From: Streptomyces albogriseolus
GTDB taxonomy: Bacteria > Actinomycetota > Actinomycetes > Streptomycetales > Streptomycetaceae
Direction of reading: 5' to 3'
Assembly: GCA_014650475.1 (NCBI GenBank)
Contig: BMVA01000009.1
Span: forward strand, 248,001 to 312,000
Length of the DNA stretch: 64,000 nucleotides
The position numbers and the translations under genes were made by a program. Below are positions 34,073 through 49,803 of the stretch, in pieces. The notes under the pieces were generated by a model that saw only the letters and a list, made by a program, of their open reading frames with translations, had not been told where the DNA came from and made no database searches. The stretch's first letter is position 1. Each line of letters starts with the position of its first letter.

Positions 34073-34951
34073 CTAGGTGAGGAGTGGCCGCACGTCCTCC
34101 GCGGCGAAGCGGACGAAGCCCTCCGGGTCGGGTTCGTCGCCGGTCGGCTGGAGGACGACCGTGTCGGCGCCCGCCTCGGCCAGCCGTCGTACGGCGTCGG
34201 CGACGGCGCGGGCGTCCCCGGCGACCCCGAGGCCGGCGTCCGCGCCGTGCCCCTCGGCGACCAGCTCGGCACGCAGCCGCTCGTGCGCCCCGTCGCCGGT
34301 CGCGGTCAGCAGATAGACGACGACCCGGTGGCCCTCCGGGTCACGCCCCGCCTCGACGCGGCCCTCCCGGATCAGCCCGCACGCCTGCCGGACGCCGTCG
34401 GCGGAGGTGTCGGCGGTGAGGATGGTGCCGTCGGCGGCCTCGCCGGTGAGCCGTACGGTGCGGGGGCCCATGCCGCCGGCCAGGACGTCGACGGGGCCGG
34501 ACGGGGGCCAGTCGAGCGCGACGTCGTCGAGGGTGACGTAGCGGCCCTTGGCCGTCACCGTCTCCCCGGCCAGCAGGGCGCGCAGGGCGAGGAGATGCTC
34601 GCGCAGCAGGGTGAGGGGCGACCCGACGCGCGCGCCGACCTGCCCCATCCAGTCCTGCACGCCATGCCCCACGCCGAGGATCGGGCGGCCGGGGAACATC
34701 CGGTGCAGGGAGGCGGCCTCCATGGCGGTGACGGCGACGTTCCGCAGAGGTACGGGCAGCAGTCCGACGCCGACGCGCAGACGCTCGCTCCACGCGAGGG
34801 CTGCGGCGCCGGTGGAGATGCCGCCCTCCCGGAAGCAGTCCTCCCACAGCCAGAGCTCCTCGAGCCCGGCCGCGTCGGCGGTGCGCACGACGGAGCAAAG
34901 CCGCTCGGGGGCGAGCTGGGGGCGGAACACAGCACCGAGTGTCGTCGTCAT
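34073..34951 (-). CDS. LLM class (probably F420-dependent) oxidoreductase
   Basis: A 292-residue luciferase-like TIM-barrel oxidoreductase. Recognisable features are the GLEELWLWEDCFREGGISTGAA region, a LRVGVGLLPVPLRNVAVTAMEAA strand-helix, HRMFPGRPILGVGHGVQDWM and VDVLAGGMGPRTVRLTGEAADG. Actinobacterial members with this pattern mostly use F420 rather than FMN. ATG 34949-34951 (MTTTLGAVFRPQ) is the start. The reaction is unknown. Confidence 0.88.
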   Translation of the reverse strand: MTTTLGAVFRPQLAPERLCSVVRTADAAGLEELWLWEDCFREGGISTGAAALAWSERLRVGVGLLPVPLRNVAVTAMEAASLHRMFPGRPILGVGHGVQDWMGQVGARVGSPLTLLREHLLALRALLAGETVTAKGRYVTLDDVALDWPPSGPVDVLAGGMGPRTVRLTGEAADGTILTADTSADGVRQACGLIREGRVEAGRDPEGHRVVVYLLTATGDGAHERLRAELVAEGHGADAGLGVAGDARAVADAVRRLAEAGADTVVLQPTGDEPDPEGFVRFAAEDVRPLLT

Positions 34952-34974
34952 GCGGGTGTACCTACCCACACGGG

Positions 34975-35004
34975 CCCGCCCCGGCACACCCTTGCCGGGG
35001 CGGG
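34975..35004. terminator. Terminator at the 3' end of the lipoprotein array
   Basis: A 12-bp perfect stem CCCGCCCCGGCA/TGCCGGGGCGGG lies 20 bases downstream of the secreted-protein stop codon. Confidence 0.8.
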
Positions 35005-35023: not shown

Positions 35024-36046
35024 CTAGCGGTTGACGGACTGGATCTCCTGGACGACGACGTCCTGGGTCGCTCCGAACTCACCGTCGGGCAGACGTTCGC
35101 CCGCGCCGCCGGATCCGGTCCAGCGGACCTCCCAGGTGACGGTCGCCTGCAGCGGGAAGGTGCCGTCGCCGGAGGAGCGCAGGTACTTCACCCCGCACGG
35201 GGGCGTCCGGTTCGCCTTGCCCTTGGCGTAGGGCTCGCCGATACGGCCGTTGTCGATCTCGCAGACACCGGAGGCCGGGTACGTCTCGGCGTCCGGGGTG
35301 CCGGGCTGGATCTTCAGCGCGACCGGCTCCGCCGTGGCCGTCGCGTAGATGCCGATCTCCGGCACGGAGGCGGTCACCGAGACCGGCTGGAACTCCGCGC
35401 CGTCCAGCCACGACCAGGTCGGCAGATTCACCTTGGTCGCCTGCGCGGGCGCGAGGGTGACCTCGGTACCGGGGACGCGGATCTCGGAGTAGGCGAGTTC
35501 GGCGAGAACCTCCGGCGTGACGGCGTTCTCGACGTCCGCGGGCGGCGGGTCGCCCTGATCCACCCAGAAGTAGTCCCTCGTGCAGGAGTCCCAGCCGGGC
35601 GGGAAGCTCTTGTCGACGTACGAGCCCCACCAGTAGCCCTTGCCGGACTTGTGCTTGTTGAAGTCCTTCTCCGGGTCGTCGGGGTTCGTGTACTTCTTCC
35701 GCTGCTCGTTGTCCCACTCGTGCCCCGTCGAACCGGCCTCCCAGATCGGCTCCAGGTACGCCTGCAGCTCCTCGGGGGAGTACTTGGGCGCGTACCAGCA
35801 GGGCGGGGGCGACCACGAGGTGCTCGACGTGAGCGCGCCGACCTTGCCGCCCTTGCCGTTCTTGGAGTGATCGAAGCGGACGCCTCCGGCGGAGACGGAG
35901 AGGGTGCCGTCGTCGTTGAGGTTGGCGCCTTTGTCTTCACCCTGCGTTCCGCTGCCCAGGTCGTCGTCGGCGTGAGCCACGCCGGGCAGGGCCAGGAGGA
36001 ACACGACCGCGCCGACAGCGGCGAACGTCCGGAAAGTGCGGGTCAC
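35024..36046 (-). CDS. Secreted protein of unknown function, coupled to lipoprotein A
   Basis: A 340-residue exported protein. Signal peptide about 1-26 (FRTFAAVGAVVFLLALPGVA, then HADD). The mature part opens with an acidic/Gly linker, then a Trp/Tyr-rich domain (SWSPPPCWYAPKYSPEELQAY; GKGYWWGSYVDKSFPPGWDS) and a beta-rich C-terminal region with paired cysteines (SGVCEIDNGRIGEP, PPCGVKYLRSSGDG). No family is recognised. GTG 36044-36046 overlaps the lipoprotein A stop by 4 bp, so the two are co-translated. Confidence 0.85.
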   Translation of the reverse strand: MTRTFRTFAAVGAVVFLLALPGVAHADDDLGSGTQGEDKGANLNDDGTLSVSAGGVRFDHSKNGKGGKVGALTSSTSWSPPPCWYAPKYSPEELQAYLEPIWEAGSTGHEWDNEQRKKYTNPDDPEKDFNKHKSGKGYWWGSYVDKSFPPGWDSCTRDYFWVDQGDPPPADVENAVTPEVLAELAYSEIRVPGTEVTLAPAQATKVNLPTWSWLDGAEFQPVSVTASVPEIGIYATATAEPVALKIQPGTPDAETYPASGVCEIDNGRIGEPYAKGKANRTPPCGVKYLRSSGDGTFPLQATVTWEVRWTGSGGAGERLPDGEFGATQDVVVQEIQSVNR

Positions 36047-36702
36047 GGCTGGCACTTGGCGCTCCCACTCTGCGAGACGATCTTCTGAATGACCCACACG
36101 CCCTTGTCGTTCTTCTTCAGCGACGTGTGGTAAATCACGTAGCTCTTGGCGGTGACCTCGGTCTTCTTGATCTTGTTGGTCTCGAGGTACTTCACGAAGG
36201 CCTTGCCCTGGTCCTCGCAATAGCTGAGCGAGGCCGTTCCATCCTTACCGACATTCACTTCCGGTGCGTAGAAGCGGTAGGACCCGGTGACCGCGGCCTT
36301 GTGGTCCACGTAGTCCTGCACGAACCTCTGCGTCTCGGCCGCTGCTTCACCCTCGTAGTAGTAGAGGTAGGCCTTGTCCAGTGCGTTCTGCTTGACGATC
36401 GCCTGGTCCACCGCCTTGATGGACTGCTCGCTGTCGGCCAGGACCGCGTCCTTCTCCTTGTCGCCGGTCTTCGGCCAGTCGAAGGTGTAGGAGAGGTCAC
36501 TGGGCAGCTCGATCTTCGGGCGGTCGTCCGAGGCCGGGGCGGACGTGGCCGGCGAGGGCGACTTCTTGTCACCCGTGTCCGCTCCCGCGATCGTGTCGCT
36601 GTCCTTCGCGGGAGAGTCGTCGTCGCTTCCGCACGCGGACAGCGTCAGAGCCGCGGTGGCGGTCAGCGCAAGCGCTGCGAGCAGGGTGGGACGGCGGTTC
36701 AC
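36043..36702 (-). CDS. Tandem-array lipoprotein A
   Basis: A 219-residue predicted lipoprotein with a classic signal and lipobox (LTLSAC, Cys24), a Ser/Pro/Asp linker, then a ~150-residue domain starting RPKIELPSDLSYTFDWPKTG. It shares with the next three genes the TGDxxKDAxLxD motif, an internal Y-C-E-D and a C-terminal K-C-Q-P, so a disulfide is likely. The helical start and mixed C-terminal half suggest an NTF2-like fold. The GTG start follows GGGAGC in a leader related to those of B and D. It is coupled to the secreted protein gene downstream. Confidence 0.88.
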   Translation of the reverse strand: MNRRPTLLAALALTATAALTLSACGSDDDSPAKDSDTIAGADTGDKKSPSPATSAPASDDRPKIELPSDLSYTFDWPKTGDKEKDAVLADSEQSIKAVDQAIVKQNALDKAYLYYYEGEAAAETQRFVQDYVDHKAAVTGSYRFYAPEVNVGKDGTASLSYCEDQGKAFVKYLETNKIKKTEVTAKSYVIYHTSLKKNDKGVWVIQKIVSQSGSAKCQP

Positions 36703-36707
36703 AGTCG

Positions 36708-36749
36708 GCTCCCGGTGGGGCGAGGCGTCACATCAGCGCGCCAACGCTA
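36708..36749 (-). promoter_or_regulatory. Promoter/leader of lipoprotein A (degenerate repeat copy)
   Basis: The 22-bp leader core (36708-36729) is identical to the leaders of genes B and D, but the upstream part differs. A -10 box TAGCGT (36744-36749, minus strand) lies 41 bases before the GTG start. Confidence 0.55.
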
Positions 36750-36830
36750 TCCAGCGGGCGCGGCGCGACACCAGAGCGAATGGGTCAACTGCAACACAGC
36801 TAATACCGAATTGGGACGCGGAGCCCTACG

Positions 36831-37475
36831 TCAGGGCCGGCACGTGGCACTTCCCCGCTGCGACGACAGACGCTCGGTCACCCACACACCGTTCCCGTTC
36901 TTCCGCACGGTGGCCGCATAGATCACGTAGGAGTTCTTGGTCACCGGTGTGACGTCCGTCTTGCCGGTCTCGAGGAACTTGTTGAAAGCCCTACTTTGAT
37001 CCTCGCAGTAGACGAGGGCGGCGGTTCCGTCCTCGTGGACCGTCACGTCGGCGTCGTAGAAGCGGGTGAACCCCGTCGTACGAGCCTTGTGATCGACGAA
37101 GTCCTGAATGTACCGCTGACTTCCCGCGGCAGCCGTGCCCTCGGAGTAGAAGCGGTAGGCCTCGTGGAGCGGGTCCTGTTCCGCGATGGCCAGATCCACC
37201 GCCTTGATCCGCTGCTCGGTGTCCGCGAGCACGGCGTCCTTCACGGGGTCGCCCGTCGTGCCCCAGTCGAACGCGTGGGTCACGTCGGAGGGCAGCTTGA
37301 TCACGGGGCGACCACCGTCGGCGGCGGGGGCCGAAGGCGAGGGCGAGTGCTGTGCAGTAGCGGAAGCCTTGTCGCTGCCCTTGGCAGGCGCGTCGGTGTC
37401 GTTCCCGCCGCAGGCGGTGAGCGTCAGTGCCACGGCCAGGGCGAGGGTGGCGAGGACGAGGCGGCGGGGGTTCAA
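36831..37475 (-). CDS. Tandem-array lipoprotein B
   Basis: A 214-residue paralogue of lipoprotein A. Lipobox LTLTAC, linker, then RPVIKLPSDVTHAFDWGTTGDPVKDAVLAD... with the shared Y-C-E-D and C-terminal T-C-R-P cysteines. The start is assigned to TTG 37473-37475 because it is the only codon placed correctly after the conserved GGGAGC leader, and it aligns with the GTG of A (LNPRR against MNRRP); an upstream ATG at 37535 would add a non-signal-like extension and overlap gene C. The function is unknown. Confidence 0.85.
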   Translation of the reverse strand: MNPRRLVLATLALAVALTLTACGGNDTDAPAKGSDKASATAQHSPSPSAPAADGGRPVIKLPSDVTHAFDWGTTGDPVKDAVLADTEQRIKAVDLAIAEQDPLHEAYRFYSEGTAAAGSQRYIQDFVDHKARTTGFTRFYDADVTVHEDGTAALVYCEDQSRAFNKFLETGKTDVTPVTKNSYVIYAATVRKNGNGVWVTERLSSQRGSATCRP

Positions 37476-37479
37476 GAAG

Positions 37480-37523
37480 GCTCCCGGTGGGGCGAGGCGT
37501 CGCTTTCGTGGGGTCACGTTATC
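37480..37523 (-). repeat. 44-bp promoter/leader repeat, copy 1 (gene B)
   Basis: This fills the whole gap between genes C and B and is identical base for base to 38846-38889. On the minus strand it begins GATAACGTGACC, containing a -10-like TAACGT (37516-37521), and ends in the GGGAGC ribosome-binding site. Confidence 0.85.
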
Positions 37524-38164
37524 TATGGCTGACACTGAGTCGCGCCCCTGGTGGAGATGATCTGAGACGTCTGCCAGACGCCCTCGACGTTCTTGTCGAG
37601 CCTCGTGTTGTACAGCACGTAGCTGTTCTTGGTGACCGGCGTCTTGTGGATCTCGTTGGTCTTCTTGTCCTTGCTGAAGCCCCTGCTCTCGTCCGCACAG
37701 AAGACCAGGGTGGCGGAGCGGTCGCCCGTGAGCGTCACCTCGCGGTCGTAGTAGCGGGCCTCGCCGGTCAATGTCGCCCCGGCCTCCTCGAACTGGGCGA
37801 CCCAGTCCTGCGCGGCTTGCAGGGCTTTGCCGGTGTTGTAGAAGGCGAGCGCCTTGCCCTCGGGGTCCGTCCCGGTGATCGCGGCGTCGACCGCGCGCAT
37901 CCGTTCCGCGTTGTCCGCGAGGATCGCATCCTTGACTGGGTCACCCGTCTCGCCGCCCTCGAAGGTCAGCTCGAGGTCTGCCGGCAACTCAATCTTCGGG
38001 CGGTCGGGAGACGTTGCGGCCGACGTGCTCACGGACGCGGGCTTGTTGCCGCCATCGGCCTGGGTGCCGCTCGCTTTGTCGTCGTCGCTTCCGCACGCGG
38101 ACAGCGTCAGGGCGGCGGTAGCGGTCAGTGCCAGTGCTGTGAGGAGGGTGGGGCGGCGGTTCAC
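37523..38164 (-). CDS. Tandem-array lipoprotein C
   Basis: A 213-residue paralogue. Its first 29 residues differ from lipoprotein A at a single position (MNRRPTLLTALALTATAA against MNRRPTLLAALALTATAA, both reaching LTLSACGSDD), yet the mature domains diverge widely. The domain shows RPKIELPADLELTFEGGETG, TGDPVKDAILAD, F-C-A-D and C-terminal Q-C-Q-P. GTG 38162-38164 follows CCAGGAGCC. Only 29 bp separate it from gene D, so D and C form one transcription unit. Confidence 0.87.
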   Translation of the reverse strand: MNRRPTLLTALALTATAALTLSACGSDDDKASGTQADGGNKPASVSTSAATSPDRPKIELPADLELTFEGGETGDPVKDAILADNAERMRAVDAAITGTDPEGKALAFYNTGKALQAAQDWVAQFEEAGATLTGEARYYDREVTLTGDRSATLVFCADESRGFSKDKKTNEIHKTPVTKNSYVLYNTRLDKNVEGVWQTSQIISTRGATQCQP

Positions 38165-38193
38165 GGTCGGCTCCTGGAGTGGCTGTCGCGCAT

Positions 38194-38841
38194 TCACGGC
38201 TGGCACTTCTCGCTGCCCCGCTCGGATGCGACGTCCGTCGTCTGCCAGACGCCGTCGGCATTCTTGGTGAGTGCGGTGCGGTAGAGCACGTAACTGTCGG
38301 CAGTGGTCGGAGTGTTGTCCACCTTGCCGGTCTTCTTGTTCTTCAGGAAGGACTTGCTCTCGTCCGAGCAATAGGTGATGTATGCCTTCTTGGTGCTGGA
38401 ATTCTCCACCTCGTAGTCGAAGTACCGGGTCTCACCGACCCATGTGTCGTTCGCCTTGATGTACCGGTTGACGAAGACGATCGCCCCGCTCAGCGCACGG
38501 TCCACGTTGTAGAAGCCCAGCGCTTCGGAATCGGTCGAGCCCTTGAAGATGGCCTCGTCCACAGAGTTCACGCCCAGGGTGCTGTCCCGCAGCGCCGCGT
38601 CCTTCGCCGCGTCGCCCGTCTTCTCGTATTCGAAGACGTTCTTCGCGTCGGACGGGAATGTCATGGTCGGGCGCCCGCTTGATTCCGACGCCGTTGGCGT
38701 CGGGGCAGGGGATGGGGCCTGGGACGCCGGCTTGCTGTCTGCCCGCTTTCCCGAGGCGGCCGAGTCCTCGCCGCCGCACGCGGTCGCGGTCAGGGCCGTG
38801 GTCACGGCGAGCGTCGTGAGGAAGGCGGTACGGCGGTTCAA
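38194..38841 (-). CDS. Tandem-array lipoprotein D
   Basis: A 215-residue first gene of the array. Lipobox LTATAC, a Ser/Pro linker, and a more divergent domain (RPTMTFPSDAKNVFEYEKTG, GDAAKDAALRD, Y-C-S-D, C-terminal K-C-Q-P). The start is TTG 38839-38841, eight codons shorter than the first in-frame ATG and placed as in gene B after an identical leader. The upstream region is shared divergently with the DUF192 gene. Confidence 0.85.
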   Translation of the reverse strand: MNRRTAFLTTLAVTTALTATACGGEDSAASGKRADSKPASQAPSPAPTPTASESSGRPTMTFPSDAKNVFEYEKTGDAAKDAALRDSTLGVNSVDEAIFKGSTDSEALGFYNVDRALSGAIVFVNRYIKANDTWVGETRYFDYEVENSSTKKAYITYCSDESKSFLKNKKTGKVDNTPTTADSYVLYRTALTKNADGVWQTTDVASERGSEKCQP

Positions 38842-38845
38842 GGAA

Positions 38846-38889
38846 GCTCCCGGTGGGGCGAGGCGTCGCTTTCGTGGGGTCACGTTATC
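38846..38889 (-). repeat. 44-bp promoter/leader repeat, copy 2 (gene D)
   Basis: Identical to 37480-37523. It carries TAACGT (38882-38887, minus strand) 40 bases before the TTG start, the same distance as in front of gene B. Confidence 0.85.
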
Positions 38890-39308: not shown

Positions 39309-39923
39309 TCAGTTCTCCCCTCGCGGGAACGAGATCTCCACCCGCCGGTTCTTCTTCCGGCCCTCTTCCGTCGAGTTGTCCGCGATCGGGTAGTCCTCGC
39401 CGTACCCACGCACTTCGTACGTGATGTTCGCGTCGCTCAGCTCCTGTTCCAGGATGCCGTGCACCGCGTTGGCCCGCTTGCGGGACAGCACGTCGCCGTG
39501 GGCGGACGAGCCGAGGTTGTCCGTGAACCCGAAGACGCGGATGCGGGACGCGTTCTGCGTCTTGATCTCGTTCGCGATGACGCTGATGCGGGCCCTCGCC
39601 TGTCCGGAGATCCTGGCGCTGTCCTTGCCGAAGAGGACCTCCGCCTGGAGGGCGAACGTCACGTTCGTGTTCGTGTCCTCGCGGCGCTCGTCCCCGCTCT
39701 GGTCCTCGACGACGGACTTGATGTCCAGCACCTTCGGCTCGGCGAGGGTGGCCCCGTCGGGGAGCTTCAGGTCGGGGTCGTTGGGGTCCAGTTCCACGGG
39801 CGCGGAGGCACTGGCTTCCGTGCCCGGCGGGACGCTCGGTCCGTCGTCGGCGCGGGCCACGGCCGGGCCGGCGGCCAGCAGCGTGGCGAGCGTGCCGATG
39901 AGAAGGAGGCGCGTGTGTGTCAT
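39309..39923 (-). CDS. OmpA-family peptidoglycan-binding protein (Tad locus)
   Basis: A 204-residue exported protein. Signal peptide ~1-25 (LLIGTLATLLAAGPAVARA), an acidic linker, then an OmpA/MotB C-terminal domain at ~90-200 with VFGFTDNLGSSAHGDVLSRKRANAVHGIL, the peptidoglycan-contact signature (Asp and Arg), and GYGEDYPIADNSTEEGRKKNRRVEI. In a Gram-positive it would tether to the wall and could anchor the pilus apparatus. ATG 39921-39923 has GTGAGGCAGGG in front and is 7 bp from the upstream gene; it is the last gene of the Tad run. Confidence 0.87.
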   Translation of the reverse strand: MTHTRLLLIGTLATLLAAGPAVARADDGPSVPPGTEASASAPVELDPNDPDLKLPDGATLAEPKVLDIKSVVEDQSGDERREDTNTNVTFALQAEVLFGKDSARISGQARARISVIANEIKTQNASRIRVFGFTDNLGSSAHGDVLSRKRANAVHGILEQELSDANITYEVRGYGEDYPIADNSTEEGRKKNRRVEISFPRGEN

Positions 39924-39930
39924 CCCTGCC

Positions 39931-40512
39931 TCACCCAGAGATCTGGATGGTGCCGCTGGCGAACATGGGCAACTGGATGGACACCTCGACCGTGTCGGTG
40001 GGCGGCGCGGGGAACTGCATGAAGACCGGCACCGACTCACCCGACTTGATGCCGGTGATGCCCGTGGTCGTCAGAGGGCGGCCGTCCGTGTCACGCAGGA
40101 CGTAGTAGCGCTTCTTGCCCTTGCTGTCGACCAACGTCGCCCCGCCGAGCGACCGACCGTTGCGGATGACCTCGGTCTCGTTGCCACTCAGCTGCGCGGG
40201 CAGGTTCAGCGACTTGTCACTGTCGTTCTTCAGGGTCCCGTTGACCGTGACGAAGCCGCCGTCGTCCCGCTCGGCCGAGGTGACCTGGAGCAGCAAGCCG
40301 TCCGGCCCCCTGAGCTCCGCGAGCGTCTCCGTGGCTTCGTTTTCCTGAGTGCTCGGTTCGGACCCGCGTTCCTGTGATGCGGACGCGGTGCTCTCCGGCT
40401 TGCCGTCGTCGTCCCCGCCACCGCCGCAGCCGGCCACGCCCAGGGCCAGTCCGGCCGCAACAACCAGCGCGACGGCCCCGCTACGGGCCCTCGTTGTGAA
40501 CCGAACGCTCAT
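39931..40512 (-). CDS. Lipoprotein of unknown function (Tad locus)
   Basis: A 193-residue predicted lipoprotein. Signal and lipobox GLALGVAGC around residues 18-29, an Asp/Ser/Glu linker, then a beta-rich domain (LLLQVTSAERDDGGFVTVNGTLKNDSDKSLNLP) with an immunoglobulin-like pattern resembling DUF4352 or FxLYD domains. ATG 40510-40512 is preferred; ATG 40519-40521 has its Shine-Dalgarno directly against it. It sits between the pseudopilin-like gene and the OmpA gene. Confidence 0.82.
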   Translation of the reverse strand: MSVRFTTRARSGAVALVVAAGLALGVAGCGGGGDDDGKPESTASASQERGSEPSTQENEATETLAELRGPDGLLLQVTSAERDDGGFVTVNGTLKNDSDKSLNLPAQLSGNETEVIRNGRSLGGATLVDSKGKKRYYVLRDTDGRPLTTTGITGIKSGESVPVFMQFPAPPTDTVEVSIQLPMFASGTIQISG

Positions 40513-40545
40513 ACCCTGCATCCTCAGTCACTCGTCGTTAGCTTG

Positions 40546-41160
40546 TCAGTCGGCCAGGTGAACGTCGAAAAGGTCCTCGGGCTTCGGCAGCAGGTCCTCG
40601 GGCGCCTCGGGGTCCAGCTCCCAGTCGGTCCCGCCCTTGCAATTGAGCGTCGGGAGCCTTTCCTCTTCGTCGGCTTCCTCTCCCCCGGCGGGTAGTTCGA
40701 AGCCGCAGCGTGGCTCGATCACCGCGCTGGCCGTCGCCCTTGACCTCTTCGTCTCGGTGCCGGGCACGATGGAATCACCGACCGTCTTGTTCGTCTGCAC
40801 TTCGACCGTGTAGCCGAGGAGACCGTCCGCATCGCAGCTCAGGACCGTCGCGTCGTTGGCGGCAGCCAGCTGCTCGGCCCTCCAGCACGACGGTGTCAGC
40901 CCTTCCGCCATGCCATCGAAGATGTCCTGCCACTTCTCGGGGTCGAGGAGGTTTTCCACCCACGCCCCGGACAGCTGGTCGCGCCTCTCCTGTGCGGCTG
41001 CGAGAGCCGCAGCGTCGGCGGCGGTCTGCGCGCCGTTCCGGTTCGCTGCAGCCTGACCGACGGCCAGGTACGCGAACGCGAGAAAGAGCAGACCCCCCAC
41101 CACCGTGATGTAGATGGGAAAGGCCTGCCCGGAATCGGCGATGTGCCGCCGACGGGTCAG
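40546..41160 (-). CDS. TadE/TadG-like pseudopilin with atypical processing site
   Basis: About 204 residues: a short basic head, GQAFPIYITVVGGLLFLAFAY membrane segment split here for length, NGAQTAADAAALAAAQERRDQ helix, then an extracellular domain with several cysteines and an acidic tail. The open frame has no ATG, GTG or TTG before the membrane segment; a CTG at 41158-41160 overlapping the Flp stop (CTGA) is the best start, with GTG 41101-41103 as fallback that would cut the pilin-like head. At the processing site G-QAFPIY, position +5 is Ile instead of Glu. Confidence 0.72.
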   Translation of the reverse strand: MTRRRHIADSGQAFPIYITVVGGLLFLAFAYLAVGQAAANRNGAQTAADAAALAAAQERRDQLSGAWVENLLDPEKWQDIFDGMAEGLTPSCWRAEQLAAANDATVLSCDADGLLGYTVEVQTNKTVGDSIVPGTETKRSRATASAVIEPRCGFELPAGGEEADEEERLPTLNCKGGTDWELDPEAPEDLLPKPEDLFDVHLAD

Positions 41161-41357
41161 ATGCCGGTGACCTCGCTGATCTTGTCGGTGATGGCATTGA
41201 AGATCGTCTGCCCGATATCCGTCCCCGTGATCGCCAGCACAATAGCCACCACCACCGCGATGATCCCCAGGTACTCCACCGCCGTCTGCCCCCGGTCGTC
41301 GCGACGGGATGCGCGGGACTGGAGGTGCCTGACCGTCGTGTTGATCCAGTTGCCCAT
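41157..41357 (-). CDS. flp: Flp/type IVb pilin
   Basis: A 66-residue prepilin. The basic leader (NWINTTVRHLQSRASRRDDR) is followed by the cleavage motif G-QTAVEY, Glu at +5 and Tyr at +6, and a continuous hydrophobic helix (LGIIAVVVAIVLAITG). The short mature size (~40 residues) is typical of Flp. ATG 41355-41357 has GGAGGGG six bases upstream, a strong site suiting a major subunit. It is separated by 150 bp from the response regulator gene, so it may have its own promoter. Confidence 0.92.
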   Translation of the reverse strand: MGNWINTTVRHLQSRASRRDDRGQTAVEYLGIIAVVVAIVLAITGTDIGQTIFNAITDKISEVTGI

Positions 41358-41507
41358 GGTGTTCCCCTCCGGCTGACGCGGTGGCGGCCTGGGTGCCGGG
41401 GCCGCTGTCGACCTCGGCACCGTACGAGGGGTTGGTCAGGCCCCTCAAGGGCCCCGGGGCCCATTTCCGGACCCAAGGGCGGGCCCATCGCGTCGTCGGC
41501 GTGCGCC

Positions 41508-42311
41508 TCACCACCGGTCACCTCCGTCCCGGGCCGGACCCCGCCGCGTCCCGAGCCACTTGGCCGTGGCCTCGGAGCGGCTCGTGCTGTGCAGCTTCGC
41601 GAAGATGCGGTTGATGTGGTTCTTGACCGTCTTCTCGCTGATGAAGCAGGTGGCGGCGATCTGCTGGTTGCTCATGCCGGACGCGATGAGCTCCATGATC
41701 TCCGCCTCCCTCGCGCTCAGCCCGTACGTCGACCTGCCAGACACCGACTGTGCCATATCTGGTTGCAGTTGCGAAAGGTTTTCCGTAGAAGTAGGTCCGG
41801 CATTCAGCCAACGCCTCCCAGACGCAGCGCCGGAAGCGGAGTCGCCCGTGCCCCCCGCCCGCAATTGCGCCAGCAACCTCCCCGCCGCCGTCGGCGTCAA
41901 GTGCGGCCTCCCCCGCCTCGCGTCCCGGACCGCCGTCACCAGTTCGTCGGGGGTGAACTCGCCGTGCACCAGGTACCCGTTCGCACCCCGGCGCAGTGCC
42001 TCGTGGACGATGTCCGACTCCCCGCTGTACGTCAGCATCAGGACCGCCGTGAGCGGCACCAGGTGAGGGAGGGCCGTGAGGCCGTCCACCCCCGGCATGC
42101 GGACGTCCAGCAGCACCACGTCGGGGAGGTGGGCGAGCGTCGCCTCGTACGCCTTCCTGCCGTCCGCCGCCTCCGCCACCACCTCCAGGTCCTCGCGGCC
42201 GGAGAGGAGGGCCGTCAACCCCGCGCGGACCACCGGGTTGTCGTCGGCCACGACCAGCCGTAGAGGGTCGGGAGGCGGCACCTCCCCGAACGGGTCCCGT
42301 TCACCGCTCAT
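41508..42311 (-). CDS. NarL/LuxR-type response regulator in the Tad locus
   Basis: A 267-residue two-component regulator. Receiver domain at ~16-135 with VVADDNPVVRAGL acidic pocket and phospho-acceptor D69 (VVLLDVRMPGVDG), a long linker, and a LuxR HTH at ~200-258 (LSAREAEIMELIASGMSNQQIA, FISEKTVKNHINRIF). Its ATG overlaps the kinase stop by 11 bp. It presumably controls the pilus genes and possibly the downstream flp unit. Confidence 0.92.
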   Translation of the reverse strand: MSGERDPFGEVPPPDPLRLVVADDNPVVRAGLTALLSGREDLEVVAEAADGRKAYEATLAHLPDVVLLDVRMPGVDGLTALPHLVPLTAVLMLTYSGESDIVHEALRRGANGYLVHGEFTPDELVTAVRDARRGRPHLTPTAAGRLLAQLRAGGTGDSASGAASGRRWLNAGPTSTENLSQLQPDMAQSVSGRSTYGLSAREAEIMELIASGMSNQQIAATCFISEKTVKNHINRIFAKLHSTSRSEATAKWLGTRRGPARDGGDRW

Positions 42312-43756: not shown

Positions 43757-44644
43757 TCACTCGCCCGTGAGCGAGCCGAAGTCGGTGCCGGAGCCGAGGA
43801 TCAGGCCGGCTCCGAGAAGGATCATCGTGGCCGGGACCATGAAGGTGGTGATCATCAAGGTGGCCTTGGGGACCGCGCGGGCCGCCTTGCGGCGGGCGTT
43901 CTGCGCGTCCGTGCGGCGCATGTCCTTGGCGAGCGCCACCAGTGTGTCCACGATCGGCGCGCCCAGCTCCTCGCCCTGCTGGAGGGCGGTGACGAACATG
44001 GCGACCTGCTCGGAGTCGTTGCGGCGGCGCAGTTCGGCGAAGGCCTGCCGCCGGCTCATGCCGAGGTCCATCTGGCGCAGGGTGATGCGCAGTTCGTCCG
44101 CCCAGGGGCCCTCGTACTGGGAGGAGACGCGTTCCAGGGCCTGGCGGAAGCCCAGGCCCGCGCTGACCACGACGGCGAGGACGTCGAGGAAGTCGGGCAG
44201 GGTCCGCTCGATGACGTCCTTGCGGACGCGGATCGCCGACCAGATGCCGACCTCCGTCCAGAACGCGCCGAACGCGAGCAGCAGCAGCGCCACGAACAGC
44301 TGGCCGCGCATCAGGAACACCAGGAAGCCGAAGCCGCCGAGGGCGCCGTAGACGGCGCGGCGGGCGGCGTAGCGGTGGATGGTGAGGCCGCCGGGGTTGC
44401 CCGCCAGGTCGATCCTGCGGCGGTACCTGGCGACCTGCTTCGGTCCCATGAGCCGCAGGACGGCGGGTGCGTAGCGCATGCCCATGCGGTCGATGAGGGA
44501 GTCGACCGCGCCGGTGCGGGTGGAGCCGACCTCCAGGGCGAGCATCAGGTCGCCGGGGAGTTTCGCCTCCGCCCGGTACATGCGGAGGCCGGCGAAGACG
44601 CCGCACACGGCGAGGGCCATGAGCGCGGCGAGCAGGAGTGCCAT
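43757..44644 (-). CDS. tadC: TadC-like type II secretion F-domain protein
   Basis: A 295-residue inner-membrane platform protein. Four helices: one at the N-terminus (~4-20), two around 95-135, and a C-terminal one (~265-285). The T2SSF domain has VIERTLPDFLDVLAVVVSAGLGFRQAL, ELRITLRQMDLGMSRRQAFAEL and FVTALQQGEELGAPIVDTLVALA. It pairs with TadB around the CpaF ATPase to drive pilin insertion. It follows tadB by 19 bp. Confidence 0.92.
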   Translation of the reverse strand: MALLLAALMALAVCGVFAGLRMYRAEAKLPGDLMLALEVGSTRTGAVDSLIDRMGMRYAPAVLRLMGPKQVARYRRRIDLAGNPGGLTIHRYAARRAVYGALGGFGFLVFLMRGQLFVALLLLAFGAFWTEVGIWSAIRVRKDVIERTLPDFLDVLAVVVSAGLGFRQALERVSSQYEGPWADELRITLRQMDLGMSRRQAFAELRRRNDSEQVAMFVTALQQGEELGAPIVDTLVALAKDMRRTDAQNARRKAARAVPKATLMITTFMVPATMILLGAGLILGSGTDFGSLTGE

Positions 44645-44663
44645 GTCGTCGTCCCCTTCCGGC

Positions 44664-45608
44664 TCAGACGTCGATGCGGGACAGGCGGCGGATGAGCAGG
44701 AAGCCGACGGCGTACAGGCCGAAGGCGACGAGGACCGCGATCTGTCCGGCCGTCGATCCGGTCATGCGCTCCAGGGCGCCGTCCTTCACCCCGTTCATCA
44801 GGAACAGCGAGCCGACGCCGAGCACGGGCACGGCGTAGGAGGTCATGCTGACCTGGGAGAGCTGGGTGCGGACCTCGCGCCGGGTCTCCTTGCGTTCCTC
44901 CAGGGTCTCGGTGAGGTTGCGCAGCGCGCTCACCACCTGGCCGCCCGCCCGGTTGGCCAGCACCAGCGTGGTGACGAGGACGACCAGTTCGCGGGAGGGG
45001 AGGCGGTCGGAGAGTTCGCCGAGGGCGTCCTCCATGGAGGCGCCCATCGCCAGCTGGTTGGCCACCTTGGCGAGTTCCTCGCCGGCCGGGGCCTCCAGCT
45101 CCTCGGCGGCGATGCCGAGGGCGGTGCGCAGGGCGAGGCCCGCCTGGGTGGCGTTGGCGAGGATGCGGGCCAGCTCGGGAAGCTGGTTGATGAACCGCTC
45201 GATGCGTTTCTGCCGCTGCCAGTCGAGGAACTGCACGGCCGCCCAGACGCCGAGCAGTGCCGCGATCGGGCCGAAGAAGGGCGCGAGGGCGGCCTGCCCG
45301 GCCAGCCACAGTCCGGCGACGGCGACGAGCATCGCCACGAAGAACTCGCCGGGCGTGACGTCCAGGCCGGTCGCGAGCAGGCGCAGCTCCAGCTTGCGGC
45401 CGAGGCGGGTGCGGCGCAGCCGGCGGTCCAGCGTGGGGAAGCGGCGCCGGCGGCCGGCGGACGGGAGCTCCCCGGTGGCCGACAGCCGGTCCACCAGCGC
45501 CTGCCGCTGCGCCCGGCCCGCCGCGTGGAGGTGCACGCCGGCGACCGCGAGGACGCAGGTCAGCAGGGTGAGGCCGGTGGTCAGCGTGATCAGGTTCTGC
45601 AGCTCCAT
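44664..45608 (-). CDS. tadB: TadB-like type II secretion F-domain protein
   Basis: A 314-residue paralogue of TadC with the T2SSF core FINQLPELARILANATQAGL, LAKVANQLAMGASMEDALGEL and VLANRAGGQVVSALRNLTETL. Helices lie at ~7-25, ~98-135, ~235-255 and ~285-305. It starts 11 bp after cpaF and precedes tadC, the usual Tad order. Confidence 0.92.
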   Translation of the reverse strand: MELQNLITLTTGLTLLTCVLAVAGVHLHAAGRAQRQALVDRLSATGELPSAGRRRRFPTLDRRLRRTRLGRKLELRLLATGLDVTPGEFFVAMLVAVAGLWLAGQAALAPFFGPIAALLGVWAAVQFLDWQRQKRIERFINQLPELARILANATQAGLALRTALGIAAEELEAPAGEELAKVANQLAMGASMEDALGELSDRLPSRELVVLVTTLVLANRAGGQVVSALRNLTETLEERKETRREVRTQLSQVSMTSYAVPVLGVGSLFLMNGVKDGALERMTGSTAGQIAVLVAFGLYAVGFLLIRRLSRIDV

Positions 45609-45619
45609 GGGGGCGGTAC

Positions 45620-46957
45620 CTACCTGGCTTCTCGGGTGGCGAGCTGGTCGGCGGTGTGGGCGATGCCGAACGCCTGGGGGACGGGCTGGCCGGCCATGTA
45701 GAGGCGGTCGGCGGTCCGCCGGGGCAGGGGGTGGTGGACGTAGGAGCCGTGGACGCGGCCGTCGGGGGTCATCGGGAGCGCGTCGAAGCGGGCGGCCGTG
45801 GCCAGCCGGTACGGCTCCCCGCCGTGGCTCTCCAGCAGGGCGATCTCGGTGATGCGGCGGGCCCCGTCGGCGAACCGGGTGAGCTGGACGATCACGTCGA
45901 CGGCGCTGTTGATCTGGTCGTGCAGGGCGACGAAGGGGATCTCCACGTCGGACATGGAGGCGAGGGTCTGCAGCCGGGTGAGGGCGTCCTCGGCGCTGTT
46001 GGCGTGGACGGTGGCGAGGGAGCCGTCGTGTCCTGTGGACATCGCCTGGAGCATGTCCAGGGACTCGCCGCCGCGGACCTCGCCGACGACGATGCGGTCG
46101 GGCCGCATCCGCAGGGAGTTGCGCACCAGGTCGCGGATGGTGACGCGGCCCTTGCCCTCGACGTTGGGCGGGCGGGACTCGAGGCGGATGACGTGCGGCT
46201 GCTGGAGCTGGAGTTCGGCGGAGTCCTCGATGGTGATGATGCGTTCGCCCTCGGGGATCAGCCCGGACAGGGCGTTGAGGAGGGTCGTCTTCCCGGTGCC
46301 GGTGGCGCCGGAGACGATGATGTTGAAGCGGGCCTGCACCAGTCCGGCCAGCAGGTACAGCATGGGCTCGTCGAGCGAGCCGAGGCCGATCAGCTCCTGG
46401 AGGGTGAAGGAGCGGGGGAAGCGGCGGATGGTGAGGACCGCGCCGGTCAGGGACAGCGGCGGGATGATGACGTTGACGCGCTCCCCGGACGGCAGCCGGG
46501 CGTCGACCATGGGGTTGGACTCGTCGACGCGGCGGTTCACGGTGGAGACGATGCGTTCGATCGTCTGCATCAGCTGGTCGTTGGAGGCGAACCGCAGCGG
46601 CAGCTGCTCCACCCGGCCGCCGCGCTCGACGAAGACGGCGTCCGGGCCGTTCACCATGATCTCGGTGACGGAGGCGTCCTCCAGCAGCGGTTCCAGGATG
46701 CCGAGGCCGAGGGCCTCGTCGACGACGCGGCGGATCAGCTGGGCGCGTTCGACCGTGGACAGGATGGGACCCTCGCGGCTGATGATGTGGCCGAGGACGC
46801 GTTCCAGCCGGGCCCGGCGCTCGGCCGGGGACAGCGCGCTCATCTCCGCGAGGTCGATCTCCTCCAGGAGCTTGGCGCGGTAGGACGCGACGAGGTGGCC
46901 GTCCTCGCCCCGCCCGGTCCTCTCCTCGGGGGAGTTGATGCGTGCCCGCAGGCTCAT
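45620..46957 (-). CDS. cpaF: CpaF/TadA secretion ATPase
   Basis: A 445-residue hexameric ATPase that powers Flp pilus assembly. Walker A GATGTGKTT is at ~217-225; the Asp box (ITIEDSAELQLQQPHV), RMRPDRIVVGEVRGGESLDML Walker B region and the His box (TGHDGSLATVHANSAEDAL) are intact. The N-terminal helical domain (EILGHIISREGPILSTVE-like) is complete. It lies 74 bp downstream of the TadE genes. Confidence 0.94.
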   Translation of the reverse strand: MSLRARINSPEERTGRGEDGHLVASYRAKLLEEIDLAEMSALSPAERRARLERVLGHIISREGPILSTVERAQLIRRVVDEALGLGILEPLLEDASVTEIMVNGPDAVFVERGGRVEQLPLRFASNDQLMQTIERIVSTVNRRVDESNPMVDARLPSGERVNVIIPPLSLTGAVLTIRRFPRSFTLQELIGLGSLDEPMLYLLAGLVQARFNIIVSGATGTGKTTLLNALSGLIPEGERIITIEDSAELQLQQPHVIRLESRPPNVEGKGRVTIRDLVRNSLRMRPDRIVVGEVRGGESLDMLQAMSTGHDGSLATVHANSAEDALTRLQTLASMSDVEIPFVALHDQINSAVDVIVQLTRFADGARRITEIALLESHGGEPYRLATAARFDALPMTPDGRVHGSYVHHPLPRRTADRLYMAGQPVPQAFGIAHTADQLATREAR

Positions 46958-49098: not shown

Positions 49099-49803
49099 TC
49101 ACTTGTCCTGCGCGAGTTCGTACGTCCGGTCCTTCTCGGGGACGCCCGTGTCGCCCCCGGGGCCGACCAGCGCGAGCCGCACCCGCTGGGCGAACGACTC
49201 GGCGTAGGTGATGCGCTGGGCGTCGAGGGTGGACAGCGCGAAGGTGATGGGGACGGCGTCGGCGGGTCCGCGGCGGTCGTCCTCGTCGGGCTGGAGGGCG
49301 GTGAGCCGGCCGACGTCGAGGACCTTGGCGCCGGTGACGATGATCTTCGACTGGTCGGGGTCGCCCTCGCGCTGCCCCTCGAAGGTGGCGTACACGTTGA
49401 CCGTGGAGCCCGGGGTGATCTTGCCGGCCACGCCGGTCGCCGCGTCGATCATGATGGCGACCTCCTGCTGCCCCGGCTGGAGGGCGGGCCGGTCCACGAT
49501 CATGTCGGTCTGCAGCAGCGACCCCTTGCGCAGGGTGGTGACGGCGATCTTGCCGCGGATGTCGTCGAGGTCGGTGACGGCGTTCTCCGACAGCCAGCGC
49601 TCGGGCATCTCGATCCGCTCGAACTGGTCGGCGCCGAGCGTGGTGTAGGGCGCGATGTCGGTGTTCAGCCGGTACGCGGCGACCTCGGGGCCGACCTTGG
49701 AGCGCACGTCGTTGATGACGGAGAGCACGCCGGCGAACGCGCCGAGGGCGCACAGGACCGACAGGAGGATGAGTATCACGCCGCGGCGCTGACGGGAGTT
49801 CAT
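49099..49803 (-). CDS. cpaB: CpaB/RcpC-like SAF domain pilus protein
   Basis: A 234-residue membrane-anchored protein with one N-terminal helix (ILILLSVLCALGAFAGVLSV), a SAF domain (RLNTDIAPYTTLGADQFERIE; GKIAVTTLRKGSLLQTDMIV) and the RcpC-type barrel (VAGKITPGSTVNVYATFEG). CpaB is a periplasmic or wall-side assembly factor in Flp pili. It lies 9 bp upstream of the CpaE-like gene. Confidence 0.9.
   Translation of the reverse strand: MNSRQRRGVILILLSVLCALGAFAGVLSVINDVRSKVGPEVAAYRLNTDIAPYTTLGADQFERIEMPERWLSENAVTDLDDIRGKIAVTTLRKGSLLQTDMIVDRPALQPGQQEVAIMIDAATGVAGKITPGSTVNVYATFEGQREGDPDQSKIIVTGAKVLDVGRLTALQPDEDDRRGPADAVPITFALSTLDAQRITYAESFAQRVRLALVGPGGDTGVPEKDRTYELAQDK

What the first reader, a model, noticed from the sequence alone, without database searches (positions are those of the whole stretch)
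35024..38841. Tandem array of four paralogous lipoproteins ending in a coupled secreted protein
Seen: four consecutive leftward genes of 213-219 codons each encode a lipobox, a linker, a TGDxxKDAxLxD motif, an internal C-(E/A/S)-D and a C-terminal C-(Q/R)-P. The last overlaps a 340-residue Trp/Cys-rich exported protein. Known: tandem lipoprotein families often diversify at the cell surface. Inference: this is a surface module next to the Tad pilus locus, possibly binding ligands or capping the pilus system; I recognise no described function.
Basis: partly seen in the sequence, partly recalled or inferred. Interest (0 to 1): 0.72.

Follow-up and report, generated by a model that had tools for sequence, protein, structure and literature searches.

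The report
Streptomyces pilus-linked lipoprotein array
Four duplicated surface lipoproteins and one secreted protein in a Streptomyces genome belong to an undescribed two-protein unit that accompanies Tad pilus machines in Actinobacteria, and that in Streptomyces is sometimes followed by genes for secreted toxin-like proteins.

Summary
The array is real: four lipoprotein paralogues (LP, 36-57% identical) end in a 4-nt overlap with a secreted 340-aa protein (E). No Pfam or NCBIfam model matches them over its cut-off. LP is predicted with high confidence as an NTF2-like fold; E ends in a loosely Ig/PKD-like beta-sandwich. LP-E is a recurring pair: 93 of 96 E ORFs examined follow an LP. In 26 Streptomyces genomes 50 of 78 listed E genes lie within 25 kb of a TadA gene (0.9 expected). 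Distant LP and E homologues sit inside Tad operons of other Actinobacteria, mostly directly upstream of cpaB, so the pair is most likely an extracytoplasmic accessory of Tad pili. The partner is probably not the neighbouring Tad1: 20 of 20 E-less Streptomyces sampled keep TadA1. It is a second type, Tad2: found in 50 of 50 E-bearing and 0 of 20 E-less genomes examined. About a third of E genes are followed by a small, weakly WXG100/EspC-like ORF and a large ORF; 13 of 29 large ORFs scanned match a type VII secretion signal domain. Binding partners, pilus dependence and toxin delivery are untested.

The parts
38194..38841 (-). LP-A, lipoprotein paralogue 1 (215 aa, TTG start; in-frame GTG start further upstream)
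   Evidence: ORF, lipobox by eye, alignments A1/A5
37523..38164 (-). LP-B, lipoprotein paralogue 2 (213 aa, GTG start; in-frame starts further upstream)
36831..37475 (-). LP-C, lipoprotein paralogue 3 (214 aa, TTG start; in-frame GTG start further upstream)
36043..36702 (-). LP-D, lipoprotein paralogue 4 (219 aa), the one coupled to E; NTF2-like model
   Evidence: model, fold comparison
35024..36046 (-). E, secreted 340-aa protein with conserved Cys/Trp and a C-terminal, loosely Ig/PKD-like domain; overlaps LP-D by 4 nt
38846..38867 (-). 22-nt leader repeat ahead of LP-A
   Evidence: exact repeat
37480..37501 (-). 22-nt leader repeat ahead of LP-C
   Evidence: exact repeat
36708..36729 (-). 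22-nt leader repeat ahead of LP-D
   Evidence: exact repeat
39309..39923 (-). OmpA-family protein at the end of the Tad1 locus; context, not part of the LP-E unit
   Evidence: PF00691 2.5e-15
39931..40521 (-). lipoprotein-like protein of the Tad1 locus (context)
   Evidence: no family over cut-off
40546..41514 (-). TadE/G-like protein of Tad1 (context; the start is uncertain)
   Evidence: PF13400 over cut-off
43757..46957 (-). TadC, TadB, TadA of Tad1 (context)
   Evidence: PF00482 twice, PF00437
47836..49803 (-). CpaE-like (AAA_31) and CpaB/RcpC of Tad1 (context)
   Evidence: PF13614; PF16976 and PF08666

Best explanation
LP and E form an extracytoplasmic accessory pair of actinobacterial Tad (Flp) pilus machines. 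Inferred mechanism: LP, an NTF2-like domain on a long linker, is lipid-anchored on the outer face of the cell membrane; E is exported, stabilised by disulfides, and its C-terminal beta-sandwich docks on the CpaB-like alignment protein or the emerging pilus. Together they would do in a cell with one membrane what secretin-side parts such as CpaD and CpaI do in Caulobacter: position or guide the pilus through the wall. In Streptomyces the pair goes with a second Tad type (Tad2); extra copies have spread to the flank of Tad1, as in this window, where LP was duplicated to four copies, giving exchangeable anchor variants. About a third of the copies lie just ahead of, and in the same direction as, genes of type VII secretion type, which suggests that the Tad2 surface structure and those products work at the same cell contacts. 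Shown: the pair, the predicted LP fold, its homologues in Tad operons, its co-occurrence with Tad2 in the sample, its cargo neighbours. Inferred: every physical contact, co-transcription, and the role in pilus passage.
Confidence: 0.58

Rival explanations
1. Toxin immunity: the LPs are surface immunity lipoproteins against type VII secreted toxins (or against E), kept in a tandem array as a repertoire, as the TilA/DUF576 tandem lipoproteins protect S. aureus against the lipase toxin TslA.
For: Tandem, copy-variable lipoproteins at loci with T7SS-type genes: 30 of 88 E genes are followed by a small ORF of 65-150 aa and 30 of 88 by a large ORF; 13 of 29 large ORFs scanned match T7SS_signal PF21725 (11 of 26 at 1e-4, plus the two RHS proteins, one ending in Tox-HNH-EHHH; L082 does not; a thirtieth, L052, was not scanned and looks like a transporter by eye). 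LP number is 1, 5 and at least 3 in species whose E is 91-95% identical to the window's. E and LP distances correlate. TilA precedent: PMC10730906, passages.
Against: LP stands 5' of E, not next to the toxin-like gene. In 32 pairs at Tad1-type sites LP falls into three types under one E type, and cargo follows 4 of 14, 3 of 8 and 0 of 6 scored pairs of these types, with no clear match (4 pairs unscored). E is conserved to its C-terminus, unlike a polymorphic toxin. dN/dS of the closest LP pairs is 0.13-0.30, no sign of diversifying selection over whole genes. No WXG100-like ORF was found in any of the 69 distant loci. No DUF576 among the hits.
Confidence: 0.2
2. Exchangeable pilus tip or adhesin: E, with LP as its tether, is displayed on or near the pilus and binds a partner cell or surface; LP duplicates widen the choice.
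For: Loosely Ig/PKD-like C-terminal fold of E, array variation between close species, Tad2 co-occurrence; Kil pili use exchangeable tips (PMC12075869, abstract and section 16).
Against: By eye neither LP nor E is a minor pilin: LP has a lipobox, E a Sec-type signal peptide. E is the conserved partner, and it is LP that varies (mean distance 0.43 for LP, 0.23 for E).
Confidence: 0.14
3. Hitchhiker: LP-E is an independent surface unit that merely uses the Tad flanks as insertion hot spots.
For: Tad1 flanks without LP-E are present in 9 of 9 readable E-less loci (a tenth, L297, ends too early); 28 of 78 E genes lie elsewhere.
Against: Does not explain the Tad2 co-occurrence or homologues inside Tad operons next to cpaB in other families.
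Confidence: 0.08

Closest known systems
Caulobacter CpaD (OmpA-like lipoprotein) and CpaI (periplasmic bridge to CpaB) of the Tad machine (PMC13170226, passages seen)
   Same: Extracytoplasmic lipoprotein plus a beta-sandwich protein, tied to CpaB and the Tad machine
   Different: Outer-membrane, secretin-bound system; no sequence relation shown; LP is NTF2-like, not OmpA-like (Tad1 in this window has its own OmpA-family protein)
TslA/TilA of S. aureus: T7SS lipase toxin with tandem DUF576 lipoproteins (PMC10730906, passages seen)
   Same: Copy-variable tandem lipoproteins upstream of T7SS-linked genes
   Different: No DUF576 match; E has a Sec-type signal and no toxin gene follows in this window; LP type does not clearly track cargo
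Kil system of Myxococcus: Tad pilus with adaptable tips working with a T3SS* (PMC12075869, abstract and section 16 seen)
   Same: Tad pilus with variable accessory proteins, linked to another export system and to cell-contact functions
   Different: Tips are minor pilins; LP and E are not pilins; no killing shown here
Family annotated 'ATP/GTP-binding protein' in Streptomyces (name and link recalled, from no call)
   Same: Thought to be the E C-terminal domain with the C...CG...W pattern and PKD-like GDG of alignment A9
   Different: Streptomyces E has an extra N-terminal PPCWY region and pairs with the longer LP

Membership tests
NTF2-like superfamily (LP) | alpha+beta cone fold of NTF2-like proteins | tested here: met
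NTF2-like superfamily (LP) | sequence match to an NTF2/SnoaL Pfam model | tested here: not met
   No such hit for LP-A to LP-D; SnoaL_4 only at 0.016 at best in 2 of 15 Tad-embedded relatives
Tad pilus accessory | encoded in or beside Tad loci more than chance | tested here: met
   50 of 78 within 25 kb, 0.89 expected; homologues in Tad operons
Tad pilus accessory | co-occurs with the Tad system it serves | tested here: met
   Tad2: 50 of 50 with E, 0 of 20 without. For Tad1 it does not: TadA1 is in all 20 E-less genomes
Tad pilus accessory | needed for pilus assembly or function | not testable with these tools
   needs mutants
TilA/DUF576 tandem immunity lipoproteins | DUF576 sequence family | tested here: not met
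   Pfam scan up to E 10 listed no DUF576
TilA/DUF576 tandem immunity lipoproteins | lipoprotein next to, and specific for, a T7SS toxin | tested here: inconclusive
   No toxin gene in the window array; elsewhere cargo lies 3' of E and LP type does not clearly follow cargo
Polymorphic toxin (E) | conserved N-terminus with a variable C-terminal toxin domain | tested here: not met
   E is most conserved in its C-terminal half, to the last residues
Kil-type Tad tips | minor pilins with prepilin processing site | tested here: not met
   By eye LP has a lipobox and E a Sec-type signal peptide
PKD/Ig-like domain (E C-terminus) | PKD sequence or fold match | tested here: inconclusive

The most novel reading that the evidence does not exclude
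Streptomyces with Tad2 run a contact-dependent antagonism system built from three parts: a Tad2 pilus, exchangeable LP-E surface units, and type VII secreted WXG100/RHS-type effectors encoded in the same cassettes; a convergent counterpart in a single-membrane bacterium of the Myxococcus Kil pilus with its T3SS*.
Probability: 0.22. Interest if true: 0.88.

Novelty: new variant of a known kind. Interest (0 to 1): 0.62.

Why it matters
How Tad pili cross the wall of single-membrane bacteria, which lack an outer-membrane secretin (recalled, not tested here), is an open question. A conserved lipoprotein plus secreted-protein pair encoded against cpaB gives two named candidates to delete and pull down. 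The recurring link to type VII secretion substrates joins two systems that my searches did not show joined in print, and makes a pilus-assisted toxin delivery hypothesis testable in harmless soil bacteria.

Tried and rejected
Pfam, NCBIfam and PDB-sequence searches of LP and E gave no family over cut-off; weak hits (for example Orthopox_A5L, Hydrolase_2, WKL family lipoprotein) were taken as composition noise or signal-peptide matches. In the genus search with the LP profile many of the 106 of 199 genomes have only weak hits near 1e-6, which I take for signal-peptide matches, so I did not use that count. LP as immunity to E: in 23 motif-selected Tad1-site pairs E-LP r was 0.38 and 0.34 after removing PhoH, E-PhoH 0.26; recounted on all 32 pairs, 0.36, 0.35 and 0.09. 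So E and LP do co-vary beyond the core gene, which fits partners of either kind, but LP type switches under one E type, so strict type matching was rejected. Diversifying selection on LP was not seen. E as a toxin was rejected on its conserved C-terminus. Tad1 as the partner was rejected. My gene caller is tuned to high GC and failed on low-GC genomes; one search repeats the question on six-frame ORFs.

Rows dropped before counts: 21 of the 71 other genomes with E hits at 1e-5 had only weak hits (best 2e-17 to 1e-6) and were left out of the 50 E-bearing genomes; 24 of these 50 were left out of the distance count because their contigs are short; only listed rows and at most ten scored candidates a genome entered it. 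TadA types were told apart by where the match begins on the A4 model; in G088 and G138 both strong hits begin at 18, and G050 (82% complete) has one strong hit, so the TadA1 of these three is uncertain. E-less genomes (20): 16 listed without a match, plus four that show no match. Of 76 places listed, 57 were fetched; 17 of the own genome or genus and two at contig starts were not. Distant E loci without TadA (42 of 69) were not followed further. The small ORFs after E match type VII families only weakly: of 30 scanned, EspC in 9 and WXG100 in 4 at 0.01, best 2e-4 and 1.9e-5; of five and 43 set against their cut-offs (three own, two others) one own ORF passes one (EspC 24.2 against 23.5). One own large ORF (L014:7603-8994) showed no T7SS_signal, but its stretch passes in the six-frame search.

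The Foldseek PDB search for either model never ran; only the VIA second look is available. No complex was modelled.
Full report
Observation. The four lipoprotein genes and the coupled secreted gene are present as described. A to D are 36-57% identical to each other, and E begins 4 nt before the end of D. A 22-nt leader is repeated exactly ahead of A, C and D, so the array grew at least in part by duplication of gene plus leader. A to E have no Pfam or NCBIfam family over cut-off.

A recurring pair. The same genome has a second LP-E pair on contig 7 and fragments of E nearby. In 79 named Streptomyces loci and the own second locus, an LP lies just upstream of 93 of 96 E ORFs; the exceptions are L042, the truncated own piece in L014 and a contig-edge fragment in L088. 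LP number varies: of the 79 loci 48 hold one LP ORF, 18 two, 9 three, 2 four, 1 five and 1 none, some contigs being short. Close relatives of the window differ: S. althioticus has one LP before an E 95% identical to the window's, S. griseoincarnatus five (91%), S. pseudogriseolus at least three (94%; short contig).

The Tad link. The window array lies between Tad1 (40546 to about 49803) and a gene at 34073-34987 that I took for an LLM-type oxidoreductase (not scanned); the second pair lies beside another Tad locus, Tad2. In 26 genomes with long contigs, 50 of 78 listed E genes lie within 25 kb of a TadA gene (0.89 expected; 22 of 26 genomes have at least one): 38 at Tad2, 12 at Tad1, 28 elsewhere. 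TadA2 is present in all 50 E-bearing genomes examined and in none of 20 E-less ones, which all keep TadA1 (Fisher 6e-18). The corresponding Tad1 flank of E-less genomes holds no LP or E by blastp in 9 of 9 readable cases, though other genes may sit there (ten fetched). So the array is dispensable for keeping Tad1, and Tad2 is the likely partner.

Deep homologues inside Tad operons. A profile of the E C-terminal domain matches 53 of 396 genomes of the phylum. In 69 loci read (57 from that search and 12 from the nine genomes), TadA was found in 27; in 20 of these a cpaB-like ORF follows E on the same strand within 300 nt or overlapping, in six the same-strand cpaB-like ORF is 1.6-6 kb away, and in L194 it is divergent. 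Of 26 loci examined (24 with a Tad gene in view, plus L192 and L193), 22 gave a lipoprotein-like ORF just upstream of E (L238 not credible); L194 and L195, missed there, have it by profile; L242 and L244 gave none. This lipoprotein family aligns with LP over 130 columns, cysteines in register (hhalign 97.4%, E 9.2e-12), while 30 shuffled and one reversed control stay below 0.5% and two other profile pairs at 0.2% or less. The own genome has such a pair inside a third Tad locus (L290). The pair is therefore older than the Streptomyces arrays and was, by this evidence, a Tad companion first.

The type VII link. Of 88 E genes in the named loci, 30 are followed within 300 nt by a small ORF and 30 by a large ORF. 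The small ones look like WXG100/EspC proteins (about 100 aa, conserved W and G) but match these families weakly (13 matches at 0.01 among 30). Of the large ones 11 of 26 match T7SS_signal at 1e-4, as do two RHS proteins of about 1,500 aa, one with a Tox-HNH-EHHH end; L082 does not. In the own genome, four of eight T7SS_signal stretches lie at 236-261 kb on contig 7, around Tad2, while the two EccB genes are on contigs 17 and 18. The window array itself has no such cargo.

How it may work. I take LP and E as outer parts of the Tad2 machine: LP tethered to the membrane, E exported and bound to CpaB or the pilus. In Caulobacter, the CpaB hairpin is predicted to pack on the beta-sandwich of CpaI, and the lipoprotein CpaD is modelled with the secretin (PMC13170226, passages); single-membrane cells lack the secretin (recalled), so a different pair there makes sense. 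This is inference. The immunity rival, modelled on TilA (PMC10730906, passages), explains arrays and cargo but not the pair inside Tad operons, the Tad2 co-occurrence, or three LP types under one E type with no clear match to cargo.

Literature. Searches for Streptomyces with Tad pilus and type VII secretion (0 papers), tandem lipoproteins with type VII secretion and immunity (2), Tad pili with Actinobacteria and lipoprotein (9), Flp pilus with Streptomyces (24, 20 listed), Micrococcus Flp/tad (15, 10 listed), Tad-like killing (42, 8 listed), tad locus/CpaB/RcpC/Actinobacteria (14, 12 listed), type VII polymorphic toxins (71 with three of four terms, 10 listed) and Tad pilus with NTF2-like and lipoprotein (0) listed no title or abstract start that describes this pair. 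I saw passages of four papers (PMC10730906, PMC4322843, PMC8467076, PMC13170226) and the abstract and one section of PMC12075869; the library lacks most subscription journals and bioRxiv. [quoted passage not shown] here a protein over the RcpC cut-off lies in Tad1.

Verdict. Real, undescribed as far as I searched, and more than an ordinary lipoprotein family: a new accessory unit of a known machine, with a suggestive but unproven tie to type VII effectors.

Noticed in passing
G000 contig 7, 228-261 kb (L014, L015 cover 228-258 kb): A second Tad locus (Tad2) is surrounded by four T7SS_signal stretches with WXG100-like neighbours, and by truncated pieces of E at 231.5 kb and 252.9 kb.
   Followed up: partly
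L290 (G000 contig 23, 16.5-33.5 kb): A third Tad locus in the same genome carries its own lipoprotein and E-like gene directly upstream of a cpaB-like gene.
   Followed up: partly
window 39309-39923: Tad1, a pilus locus of a single-membrane bacterium, ends in an OmpA-family protein; Caulobacter CpaD is also OmpA-like, so this may be the Tad1 wall anchor.
   Followed up: no
window 43757-44644: TadC of Tad1 has an N-terminal DUF5936 domain (PF19359, 1.9e-66) before its T2SSF domain.
   Followed up: no
window 49099-49803: A CpaB/RcpC protein (PF16976, PF08666 over cut-off) in an actinobacterial Tad locus, against a printed statement that rcpC/cpaB is absent from Gram-positive tad loci.
   Followed up: partly
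L044:3933-8459 and L047:14857-19344: RHS proteins of about 1,500 aa with a T7SS signal domain downstream of E; one ends in a Tox-HNH-EHHH nuclease domain.
   Followed up: partly
L015:15187-16500, L014:5074-5664 and L060:12780-13379: Proteins of about 200 aa stand next to or near the T7SS-type ORFs and could be their immunity or chaperone proteins; the first three ORFs have no Pfam hit, that of L060 was not scanned.
   Followed up: no
L192, L193: LP-E pairs in another family of the same order with no Tad gene in view on short stretches; LP profile hits 1.8e-33 and 4.8e-30.
   Followed up: no
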